Positions 6,454 to 8,849 of a stretch of 48,926 nt of DNA are shown here, piece after piece. This DNA is from Leptolyngbyaceae cyanobacterium HOT.MB2.61. GTDB lineage: Bacteria; Cyanobacteriota; Cyanobacteriia; Leptolyngbyales; Leptolyngbyaceae. Each line of letters starts with the position of its first letter. Position 1 is the first letter of the stretch. Below the pieces are notes generated by a model. That model did not search any database. It was given only the letters and a program-made list of their open reading frames with translations, and had not been told where the DNA came from. A program made the position numbers and the translations under genes. The stretch spans positions 1 through 48,926 of the forward strand of contig JAIMBL010000009.1 of assembly GCA_023511615.1 (NCBI GenBank), given 5' to 3'.

Positions 6454-7659
6454 TTAACTTCTTCGGTGCCCGTTACGAATCGGAGTGCCGCAGGGATAGG
6501 TTGCTACCAACTCTCGTTCTGGCTCGATTACCGGAATTGGGGTAGAAGCCAGATAAGCAGGCTTGGCTTTGGCCGCTTCGTAATCAGCCTTCAGTTTTGC
6601 CAGCATTTCAGCACGCCGGTCATAGAGCCGCTTTAGAGGCCGCGGTTGGCATTGACTAATCACGTAAGCGGTCATAATCGGTAGGGCGATCGTGCTGTCT
6701 GTATAGCAAACGATAGTATTGGGTAACTCTTCAGGGTCTACCTTGCCCCAACTCACTGCTTCGCTGGGGGTTGCACCAGACAGTCCACCAGTGTCAGGGC
6801 GGGCATCGGTTACCTGAATGAAGTAGTCATGTCCCCGCTCTTCCAGTCCCAGCACCTCATGTAACTGGGGTTGGGTTTGCAGCAAAAAGTTTTTGGGACT
6901 GCCACCACCGATAATCAAGGCTGCGCTCTTGCCTTCTATACCAGGAGTGTCAGTTTCACGGGCAGTATAGGCGATCGCAGCGGTTTCATTCACATCCAGA
7001 GAGGGGTCGAGTACCAGTTGAGAGTCTTCCAGAGCGATCGCCGCCACATTCATGCCAATGGAACTGTCCCCCGGTGAGGAAGTGTAGATTGGAACACCAC
7101 ACTCGTAAGCTGTTGCCAGCAGACAGGAATTCTTGACACCCAATTGCTTTTCAACCTCCCGCACATACTGACCCAGCAGGTAATGAAACTCTGCCGTGCT
7201 CATACGCTTCTGAAACGGTTCCGCTTTCAAAATTTCCCGCAGAAATGCGTCGGTCTCCAACAACACATCGTACTCAAAAACAATGTCATAGATGCGAATT
7301 CGTCCTTCCTGACGCAGTTTCACATCGTCCAGAAAAGGGCTGCTGGAATATAGTTCCAGGCCTAATCCGTAGTGCATATCGTGATAAAGGTTTGCCCCCG
7401 TACTGATCATCCAGTCCACAAAGCCGTTACGCACCAGGGGAGCCAACACCGATATACCAAAACCGGCTGGGGTCATAGCGCCAGATAAACTCATTCCCAC
7501 CGTGACGCCTTCCTGCATCACTTCACGGCTCAACAGGTGGCAAATCTCCCGCAGGCGGGCAGAGTTATAGGCTGTAAAGTATCCATCAATCAAATCAACA
7601 ACACCGATCTCCGCAGGCATGGGGGAGGGTGCGATTTTGTGGCTGAGCAATTTTGACAT
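6454..7659 (-). CDS. Deoxyhypusine synthase-like protein
   Basis: Homologue of the NAD-dependent aminobutyl-transferases (deoxyhypusine synthase and homospermidine synthase group), 401 aa. Bacteria lack eIF5A, so the substrate is probably a polyamine rather than a protein lysine; that is inference from the family. Visible landmarks: GMSLSGAMTPAGFG near the N-terminus, the nucleotide-binding-like GGGSPKNFLLQTQP, and SWGK with Lys306, matching the lysine that forms the enzyme-imine intermediate. The frame is open to 7746, but the ATG at 7659 has GGAG upstream and begins MSKLLSHKI at the conserved domain. The leader contains a large multibranched RNA structure (7749-7915) that might regulate it. 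Confidence 0.88.
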   Translation of the reverse strand: MSKLLSHKIAPSPMPAEIGVVDLIDGYFTAYNSARLREICHLLSREVMQEGVTVGMSLSGAMTPAGFGISVLAPLVRNGFVDWMISTGANLYHDMHYGLGLELYSSSPFLDDVKLRQEGRIRIYDIVFEYDVLLETDAFLREILKAEPFQKRMSTAEFHYLLGQYVREVEKQLGVKNSCLLATAYECGVPIYTSSPGDSSIGMNVAAIALEDSQLVLDPSLDVNETAAIAYTARETDTPGIEGKSAALIIGGGSPKNFLLQTQPQLHEVLGLEERGHDYFIQVTDARPDTGGLSGATPSEAVSWGKVDPEELPNTIVCYTDSTIALPIMTAYVISQCQPRPLKRLYDRRAEMLAKLKADYEAAKAKPAYLASTPIPVIEPERELVATYPCGTPIRNGHRRS

Positions 7660-8463
7660 CTTTGCACTCCGAGAAGAATGGACAGCATAAATAGGGTTGA
7701 AGAAGTGAACATTGGCATCCCCAGGGATAAATATCCTCCCGCGCACACAGGACAGCTACTGCACCAGGCAGCGCCGCTGGGATGTTCCCTGGTAAAGCCA
7801 GCCTTCCGTGTCTCACGCAGCCTTCCTGCCTGGGTAAGCAGGTTAAGCAGCAGACACGTTCTGATTGGTAGAACTCTGGGACAGCAGAGTGTCTGCAATC
7901 CTTCAGGATTGTCCTTACCAGAACCTGACGCTCGGGATCGGCAGAACGACAAATGAATGCCATTCAGCGAACCTTATACCTACAAACAAGCAACTCTGCT
8001 CTTGGATATTTAGTTAAAAAATTCTCCTGAAGAGAACTTGACCGACCGAGTTCGCAAGATTGAGGAAAGGCCAAAGCCCGGATGGATGCTATCAAACCAA
8101 TTCCAACGAGTTGCGAACCTCAAGTTACAGGTCGGTCAGGTCATACTGGGTGCTTCACACCGATCGGCCCAGGATAGTGCCGGGTCACACTGCCGTTTCC
8201 GCTTTAATTTCATTTCCAGATACCAGAGCAAATGGTATCCAGTCAGGGTAAGAGGTCTCAATTCTCTCAGATAACCTTCAGACACCAACCCTACCAATCT
8301 AGCACCAATATCTCAAAGCTTCTCAATAGAACTACGGATTTTTTTTAACAAAAGGTGGCTTTTGGCGAAATTCCTTGATGGCTTAGAGCTGGTTGGTTGC
8401 ATCTGTTGAGAGGATACGCAATGATTGATGGCAGCAGGTATTAGCATGGCTCCATCCTTATAG
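7660..8463. other. Long intergenic region (about 800 bases)
   Basis: No protein gene is supported. The part next to the deoxyhypusine-synthase-like gene (about 7690-7970) has overlapping open frames on both strands plus strong self-complementarity, which reads as structured noncoding sequence (see 7749-7915). From 8000 to 8463 I see only short open frames without ribosome binding sites, and an A/T-rich patch near 8335-8355. Both flanking promoters should lie here. Confidence 0.5.
7749..7915 (-). ncRNA. Candidate structured RNA or cis-regulatory leader
   Basis: Complementary segments nest into a closed domain. AGGAC (7749-7753) pairs with GTCCT (7911-7915). CCAGGCAG (7764-7771) pairs with CTGCCTGG (7826-7833) and encloses CGTG/CACG (7807-7817) and GCTGG/CCAGC (7776-7802). 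GCAGACAC (7850-7857) pairs with GTGTCTGC (7889-7896) and encloses two abutting hairpins, GTTCT/AGAAC (7858-7874) and TCTG/CAGA (7875-7888), with no unpaired junction base. AATCC/GGATT (7897-7910) adds a tetraloop hairpin. The strand is assigned by context: on the minus strand the domain ends 90 bases before the deoxyhypusine-synthase-like start. It matches no RNA class I can name. It could instead be an intergenic palindromic repeat. Confidence 0.42.
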
Positions 8464-8495
8464 CATTTGTGCAAAATGACATTTGTGCAAAATGA
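8464..8495 (+). repeat. Perfect 16-base tandem repeat abutting a start codon
   Basis: CATTTGTGCAAAATGA occurs twice in a row (8464-8479 and 8480-8495), directly followed by ATG at 8496. Each unit carries an ATGA, so the duplication adds short upstream start-stop pairs. Confidence 0.85.
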
Positions 8496-8849
8496 ATGAA
8501 GCTATTGCGTGTCATAGGACGCATCAAGCCCTTCTATTCGCTGCATCGCCTGTCCATGTCAAACAGTTCCTCCGGCAAGTCTTCAACCGCCAAGCAATCT
8601 CAGCCGCTTGCCCAATCCGCCCGCTGGCATACATTTCCCGAAATTCTGCAACGCCTCCATCAGGAACGTATTTTCATCCATTCTGACCAACTTGCAGAGT
8701 TTATGGTATACCACGGGTTGCCAGTTGACCTCTGCTATGTACCAAAGCACTTGAAGCAACGAGCGAAGCTGATTAACGAAAACTATCAGGGAGACATGGC
8801 GCGGTTAGAGATGGTCAAAGAGCAGCCCAGCCTGTTTAAGTTTGAGTAG
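8496..8849 (+). CDS. Conserved hypothetical protein upstream of cobO
   Basis: Unrecognised protein of 117 aa, or 97 aa if translation begins at the ATG at 8556 (MSNSSSGKSS). The first 40 residues are Ser/Lys/Gln-rich and look disordered. The rest (WHTFPEILQRL, SDQLAEFMVYHGLPVDLCYVPKHLKQRAKLINENYQGDMARLEMV) is helical and has the composition of a real protein. Neither start has a Shine-Dalgarno; the first follows a tandem 16-base repeat. It lies 74 bases before cobO on the same strand and may be cotranscribed with it. No motif suggests a function, and the shorter start is at least as likely. Confidence 0.65.
   Translation: MKLLRVIGRIKPFYSLHRLSMSNSSSGKSSTAKQSQPLAQSARWHTFPEILQRLHQERIFIHSDQLAEFMVYHGLPVDLCYVPKHLKQRAKLINENYQGDMARLEMVKEQPSLFKFE

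What the first reader, a model, noticed from the sequence alone, without database searches (positions are those of the whole stretch)
7749..7915. Multibranched RNA domain ahead of the deoxyhypusine-synthase-like gene
Within 167 bases, complementary segments nest without conflict: closing AGGAC/GTCCT, an 8-bp CCAGGCAG/CTGCCTGG arm, and an 8-bp GCAGACAC/GTGTCTGC arm. The last encloses two hairpins (5 and 4 bp) that abut with zero unpaired junction bases, 17 bp in 47 bases. An AATCC/GGATT tetraloop hairpin is added. On the minus strand it ends 90 bases before a gene of the polyamine-modifying deoxyhypusine/homospermidine synthase family. That would suit a riboswitch-like leader or a stand-alone ncRNA. 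It carries no motif of RNase P, tmRNA, SRP, 6S or cobalamin riboswitch that I can see.
Basis: partly seen in the sequence, partly recalled or inferred. Interest (0 to 1): 0.72.

Follow-up and report, generated by a model that had tools for sequence, protein, structure and literature searches.

The report
Conserved leader peptide before homospermidine synthase
The folded stretch that was flagged is unconserved filler, but just upstream lies an undescribed cyanobacterial control unit: a roughly 40-residue leader peptide whose end runs into a conserved RNA stem, always placed in front of the gene for an enzyme that makes the polyamine homospermidine.

Summary
It folds only marginally better than chance, the predicted fold drops two of the four named stems, it is single-copy, and no relative's DNA matches it, not even the congener's.

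The conserved object lies 100-390 bases further upstream on the same (minus) strand, at 8304-8016: an extended -10 promoter (76 of 84 distinct loci), a 41-codon TTG-start ORF, a stem whose 5' arm starts at the stop codon, and in close relatives an intrinsic terminator. In the ORF 82% of codon differences are synonymous (27% expected). The stem is 99.7% paired in 73 loci, with compensatory changes.

The ORF was found in 138 of 390 genomes of the class. Wherever the downstream sequence is available it precedes, on the same strand, a deoxyhypusine-synthase-family gene of one of two subfamilies (homospermidine synthase; bis-guanidino-azanonane synthase). Two genomes have two such genes and two such ORFs. 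No Rfam, Pfam, PHROGs or PDB match, and no meaningful NCBIfam match.

Best reading: a cis-acting leader peptide controlling homospermidine synthesis. The ribosome-controlled switch is inferred; in silico masking at the stop codon did not disrupt the terminator.

The parts
8296..8304 (-). Extended -10 promoter element TGCTAGATT of the leader transcript; start of transcription expected near 8289
   Evidence: TGnTAnnnT in 76 of 84 distinct loci at a nearly fixed distance from the ORF end, shuffle expectation 12.3
8136..8261 (-). Leader ORF, TTG start, 41 codons plus stop: (M)RPLTLTGYHLLWYLEMKLKRKRQCDPALSWADRCEAPSMT
   Evidence: 82% synonymous single-base codon differences against 27% expected, no stop in 73 loci; conserved TTG; profile hits in 138 of 390 genomes
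8130..8138 (-). 5' arm of stem P1, UGACCGACC; begins at the stop codon UGA (8138-8136)
   Evidence: 99.7% of cells paired in 73 loci, compensatory changes at several pairs
8039..8047 (-). 3' arm of stem P1, GGUCGGUCA
8113..8119 (-). 5' arm of stem P2, GGUUCGC, separated from P1 by the conserved bulge UGUAACUUGA (8129-8120)
   Evidence: Conserved sequence in the alignment; formed in the predicted fold
8049..8055 (-). 3' arm of stem P2, GCGAACU
8016..8038 (-). Intrinsic-terminator-like hairpin AGTTCTCTTCAGGAGAAT with T run
   Evidence: Shared by most loci of the window's family; predicted with probability 0.99; not universal outside the family; too few G-C pairs for the tool's own scanner
7749..7915 (-).
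   Evidence: No match in relatives; single copy; marginal folding
7684..7691 (-). TTTATGCT box about 25-30 nt before the enzyme's ATG; possible -10 element or other signal
   Evidence: TATGC/T box in 43 of 69 loci; its last base varies (T, C or G), unlike a good -10
6454..7659 (-). Deoxyhypusine-synthase-family gene, homospermidine biosynthesis protein (NF001980), the presumed target
   Evidence: 577.8 bits against a cut-off of 450; PF01916

Best explanation
Window 8304-8016 (minus) is the start of the 5' leader of the homospermidine synthase gene, and it encodes a conserved leader peptide whose translation controls the downstream gene in cis. Transcription starts at an extended -10 promoter. 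A ribosome initiates at a weak TTG codon and makes a peptide of about 41 residues with a variable N-terminus and a near-invariant end (R-x-C/S-D-P-A-L-S-W-x-D-x-C-E-A/G-P-S-M). The ORF ends inside the 5' arm of stem P1, so a ribosome that pauses at the end of the ORF must keep P1 open, and one that leaves lets it close. Beside P1 lies a terminator in the window's family; in another lineage the last codons instead pair with the Shine-Dalgarno region of the enzyme gene. The state of the ribosome at the end of the ORF would set how much enzyme is made, presumably in response to arginine, agmatine or a polyamine. Shown computationally: coding-type conservation of the ORF, compensatory conservation of the stem, the conserved promoter, and strict linkage to two subfamilies of the enzyme. 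Inferred: cis control, ribosome pausing, the signal, and the direction of the response.
For: Coding signature and peptide conservation up to the end with variable N-terminus. P1 covariation starting at the stop codon. Promoter in 76 of 84 loci and no comparable promoter next to the enzyme gene (5 of 69 against 14.0 expected). Always upstream on the same strand where downstream sequence is available. Linked to two enzyme subfamilies, with two copies in genomes that hold two DHS-family genes. In seven loci of one lineage the Pro-Ser codons CCUAGUCC are complementary to GGACUAGG joined to the ribosome-binding site. Precedent: the speF leader ORF (PMC6386406).
Against: Folding with the stop region masked did not weaken the terminator in any of 18 loci, and masking the Pro-Ser codons freed the ribosome-binding site in only one of seven loci, so no switch is demonstrated. 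Terminator-like sites are only modestly enriched over all groups (32 of 73 against 19.9). The distance to the enzyme gene is long (median 450 nt) and a TATGC box lies before many of the enzyme genes. About 50 genomes have the enzyme without the leader. No transcript or translation data were available.
Confidence: 0.65

Rival explanations
1. The ORF is an independent small protein gene with its own promoter and terminator. The 40-residue product acts in trans, for instance as a partner or regulator of the DHS-family enzyme, and its gene simply neighbours the enzyme gene.
For: Own promoter and, in the window's family, own terminator; long spacer; no switch found in silico; protein-level conservation is strong.
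Against: Strict upstream, same-strand position in all loci with sequence available, a second copy in genomes with a second DHS-family gene, the stop codon built into a conserved stem, and pairing of the last codons with the enzyme's ribosome-binding site in one lineage are all unexpected for a trans-acting protein. Many genomes have the enzyme without the ORF.
Confidence: 0.22
2. The RNA itself (P1, the UGUAACUUNA bulge and P2) is a metabolite- or protein-binding element, and the ORF is secondary to it.
For: Bulge and stems are strongly conserved; the AGT codon just before P1 is invariant in 73 of 73 loci.
Against: The lineage of L095-L098 has the peptide without P1, so the peptide is the more widely kept part; no Rfam family matches.
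Confidence: 0.1
3. The flagged stretch 7749-7915 is itself a functional structured RNA specific to this species.
For: Two 8-bp helices in 167 nt, 2.5% of shuffles; marginal folding z.
Against: No homologue in 38 related genomes although both flanks are conserved; two of four stems absent from the predicted fold; it was selected by eye for its palindromes.
Confidence: 0.03

Closest known systems
speF leader ORF (orf34, also called SpeFL) of Salmonella and E. coli (PMC6386406)
   Same: Short conserved ORF in a long leader before a polyamine-pathway gene; conserved arginine residues; downstream structure affecting termination and ribosome-binding-site access.
   Different: No sequence similarity that I can see by eye; different enzyme (ornithine decarboxylase), different phylum. 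In the speF case Rho, arginine and RNase G roles were shown by experiment; here nothing has been.
Translational attenuators of the ermC type (general knowledge)
   Same: In one lineage (L095, L096, L098, L148-L151) the end of the leader ORF pairs with the region of the ribosome-binding site of the next gene.
   Different: Pairing partner is the coding end of the leader itself; a stall-dependent release was not reproduced in silico except in L151; no drug-resistance gene.
Polyamine-sensing nascent peptides of eukaryotes, such as the fungal antizyme stimulator peptide (PMC4505036)
   Same: A nascent peptide linked to polyamine homeostasis as a possible sensor.
   Different: Eukaryotic frameshifting mechanism, no homology claimed, signal untested here.

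Membership tests
Leader-peptide (uORF) cis-regulators in general | Short ORF upstream of, and on the same strand as, the regulated gene | tested here: met
   All loci with downstream sequence available
Leader-peptide (uORF) cis-regulators in general | ORF is translated-type sequence | tested here: met
   82% synonymous differences against 27% expected
Leader-peptide (uORF) cis-regulators in general | Alternative RNA structures that depend on ribosome position | tested here: inconclusive
   P1 overlaps the stop, but masking did not change the terminator, and freed the ribosome-binding site in one of seven loci only
Leader-peptide (uORF) cis-regulators in general | Leader and gene are co-transcribed and leader translation alters gene expression | not testable with these tools
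   No RNA-seq or reporter data available
SpeFL (speF leader) family | Sequence homology to SpeFL and location before an ornithine decarboxylase gene | tested here: not met
   The downstream gene is DHS-family, not a decarboxylase; sequence homology itself was not run
Known riboswitches and ncRNAs (Rfam) | Match to a covariance model | tested here: not met
   No match in the window or in 14 relatives; 6S is on another contig
Known small-protein families | Match in Pfam, NCBIfam, PHROGs or PDB | tested here: not met
   None; one of 36 members touches an unrelated NCBIfam model at E 0.025
Repeat element (REP or MITE type) for the flagged stretch | Several copies in the genome | tested here: not met
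   Single copy

The most novel reading that the evidence does not exclude
A previously undescribed family of nascent-peptide sensors, conserved across many cyanobacterial families, in which the ribosome making the leader peptide reads the level of arginine, agmatine or a polyamine and sets homospermidine synthase expression: attenuation-type control in a phylum for which a 2016 survey saw no reliable data on attenuation.
Probability: 0.4. Interest if true: 0.85.

Novelty: new variant of a known kind. Interest (0 to 1): 0.68.

Why it matters
Homospermidine is needed for normal nitrogen-fixing growth in Anabaena (Burnat et al. 2018, known to me only as a reference title shown). I found no described regulation of its synthesis in cyanobacteria in the papers searched, and a 2016 survey stated that there was no reliable data on attenuation in cyanobacteria (PMC4833913). 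A compact, widely conserved leader peptide tied to two enzyme subfamilies of one pathway gives a directly testable case: change the start codon, toeprint, titrate arginine, agmatine and polyamines. It also adds an apparently undescribed protein-coding gene to many cyanobacterial genomes.

Tried and rejected
Housekeeping RNAs: Rfam and ARAGORN gave nothing in the window, and 6S lies on another contig. Repeat element: rejected, single copy. Conserved ncRNA without ORF: my first reading of the conserved 8001-8345 block, dropped when the alignment showed wobble-position variation. Peptide as a lysine substrate of the DHS-like enzyme: rejected, because no lysine is invariant; L105, L106 and L113 have GLRQRR where others have KLKRKR. 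Programmed -1 frameshift into ELTDL after the Met codon: considered because that frame is conserved for five codons, but no slippery site is visible and the same bases are explained by P1 covariation. Simple antitermination by a ribosome parked at the stop: not supported by folding. Hidden leader in DHS loci that seemed to lack it: relaxed searches for peptide core and P1 arm found nothing in 20 such loci. Literature: no paper in the held library links a leader peptide to homospermidine in cyanobacteria. Folding energy as a criterion: even the conserved leader has only z -1.1, so energy alone is uninformative here.

Full report
OBSERVATION. The gene it precedes is a deoxyhypusine-synthase-family protein, best matched by NCBIfam NF001980, homospermidine biosynthesis protein (577.8 bits, cut-off 450). 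As an RNA the stretch is unremarkable. The minus strand folds with z -1.7 (13 of 200 shuffles as good). The exact 167 nt gives z -2.0, and about one in ten other windows of the contig fold as well. The predicted minus-strand fold keeps the GCAGACAC arm and the AATCC hairpin but not the closing stem or the CCAGGCAG arm. The stretch occurs once in the genome.

CONSERVATION POINTS ELSEWHERE. Searching the whole intergenic region 7660-8500 against 38 related genomes gave matches in 24, reaching other families of the class. None touches 7749-7915. The matches cover about 8001-8345, plus a short piece next to the gene start. In 19 of 20 fetched loci (the window's own included) the match lies upstream of the same gene on the same strand; the twentieth (L007) is cut by a contig end. 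The single congener has a spacer about 130 nt shorter with no alignable counterpart of the flagged stretch.

ANATOMY OF THE CONSERVED UNIT (minus strand). (1) Promoter: TGCTAGATT at 8304-8296, an extended -10 element. The pattern TGnTAnnnT occurs in 76 of 84 distinct loci, nearly always within a narrow distance range; shuffles give 12.3. (2) Leader ORF 8261-8136: TTG start in all of the first 20 loci, GTG, ATG or TTG elsewhere. Over 73 loci 82% of single-base codon differences are synonymous (27% expected), with no stop codon. The two other forward frames give 11-13% and at least 145 stops. One antisense frame also scores 64% with no stops; it shares its third codon position with the sense frame, so I take it as a shadow. 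The N-terminus varies, while the part from an invariant Trp to the end is nearly fixed; in the broad alignment W, L, L, P, C, E and P are invariant and R, L, S, D, S nearly so. (3) Stem P1: the 5' arm begins at the stop codon (UGACCGACC, 8138-8130) and pairs with GGUCGGUCA (8047-8039). On an alignment made from sequence alone, 99.7% of 9 x 73 cells pair. Re-dealing partners gives 94.6% on average and at most 96.0% in 2000 trials; sliding the partner by 1-3 columns gives 8-52%. Pairs 4 and 8 change on both arms at least nine times each by parsimony without ever being left unpaired. Eleven of the 84 distinct loci were left out of this alignment because they lack P1, have a shortened form of it, or gave a different best helix. 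A conserved bulge UGUAACUUNA and a second stem follow. (4) Terminator: AGTTCTC-TTCAG-GAGAAT plus T run at 8038-8016, shared by most loci of the window's family. Over all groups terminator-like sites are only modestly enriched (32 of 73 against 19.9 in shuffles). The tool's own scanner, which asks for three G-C pairs, did not list this site.

DISTRIBUTION. A profile of the peptide finds it in 138 of 390 genomes of the class, 65 of 160 genera. A phylum-wide search with a broader profile found it only in the same class. A DHS-family gene is present in 186 of the same 390 genomes. Comparing the two lists by eye, 135 of the 138 ORF-bearing genomes have it; the exceptions are G032 (ORF near a contig end), G317 (82% complete) and G157 (one weak hit). 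Among fetched loci the ORF is always upstream on the same strand; where tblastn missed a divergent enzyme, its start was read by eye in the sequence or taken from the coordinates. Two different enzyme subfamilies carry the leader: NF001980, and NF002699 (1,9-bis(guanidino)-5-aza-nonane synthase, 592.8 and 582.8 bits). The latter name corresponds to the agmatine-homocoupling route to homospermidine described in Thermus (PMC10981699; the correspondence is my inference from the chemistry). Genomes G065 and G164 each have two leader ORFs and two DHS-family genes. In G065 the second leader (L112) stands before an NF002699-type gene, and in G164 (L152) the downstream gene begins with nearly the same sequence. 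About 50 genomes with the enzyme lack the leader; relaxed searches of 20 such upstream regions found no trace.

MECHANISM. The layout is that of a leader peptide controlling the downstream gene: a conserved peptide end, a stop codon inside an RNA stem, a terminator beside it in close relatives, one conserved promoter at the far end and none of that type next to the gene (5 of 69 against 14.0 expected). In seven loci of one lineage P1 is absent. Instead the codons for Pro-Ser, CCUAGUCC, are complementary to GGACUAGG, whose last AGG is the first half of the AGGAGG ribosome-binding site of the enzyme gene. The AGT codon is invariant in 73 of 73 loci, although the other conserved serine varies freely at its third position, so nucleotide-level constraint starts there. 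What is not shown: masking the region that a ribosome would cover at the stop did not weaken the terminator in any of 18 loci, and masking the Pro-Ser codons freed the ribosome-binding site in only one of seven. The switch therefore needs another partner, Rho, co-transcriptional kinetics, or a different pause site. Three lineages read a few codons further into the stem, so a pause, if there is one, is more likely at the Pro-Ser-Met codons than strictly at the stop. The arginine at codon -16 (70 of 73) with Lys or Arg before it recalls the paired Arg codons of Salmonella orf34, which sense arginine (PMC6386406). Homospermidine is made from arginine by way of agmatine and putrescine (general knowledge), so arginine, agmatine and polyamines are the signals to test first.

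KNOWN OR NEW. No match in Rfam, Pfam, PHROGs or PDB sequences; in NCBIfam one of 36 members touches an unrelated family at E 0.025. The held literature has no leader peptide for homospermidine synthesis. A 2016 survey says there was no reliable data on attenuation in cyanobacteria (PMC4833913). The general kind, leader ORFs before polyamine genes, is known from speF; the peptide, the stem, the target enzyme and the host group differ. Most subscription papers and the annotation of the individual genomes were out of reach, so an existing annotation of the ORF cannot be excluded.

VERDICT. The flagged palindromes are ordinary. The finding led to a real, strongly conserved and apparently undescribed leader unit 100-390 bases upstream. 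Existence of the unit is close to certain; cis control of the enzyme gene is probable; the switch itself and its signal remain to be shown.

Noticed in passing
7684-7691, minus strand, and homologous positions: A TTTATGC box lies about 25-30 nt before the ATG of the enzyme gene in 43 of 69 loci; its following base varies, so it is an imperfect -10 candidate and its role is open.
   Followed up: partly
8120-8129, minus strand, and homologous loci: The unpaired UGUAACUUNA bulge between P1 and P2 is almost invariant in the alignments, with no explanation so far.
   Followed up: no
8496-8849, plus strand: A 117-aa ORF ahead of the cobO-like gene is conserved in several relatives (53-64% identity) but has no Pfam or NCBIfam match.
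   Followed up: no
L095, L096, L098, L148-L151: In this lineage the Pro-Ser codons of the leader are complementary to the ribosome-binding-site region of the enzyme gene, in place of P1.
   Followed up: partly
L088, L090-L092, L072-L080, L110, L112: In three lineages the stop codon is replaced by a sense codon and the ORF runs several codons into P1 or its counterpart (endings such as FRSTF, VRSAC, SGLAC), while the stem is mostly kept.
   Followed up: partly
L128-L147 (upstream regions of leaderless DHS-family genes): Most genomes of family f32 and several other families have the enzyme without the leader, yet two f32 genomes (G556, G594) have it; loss or transfer was not resolved.
   Followed up: partly
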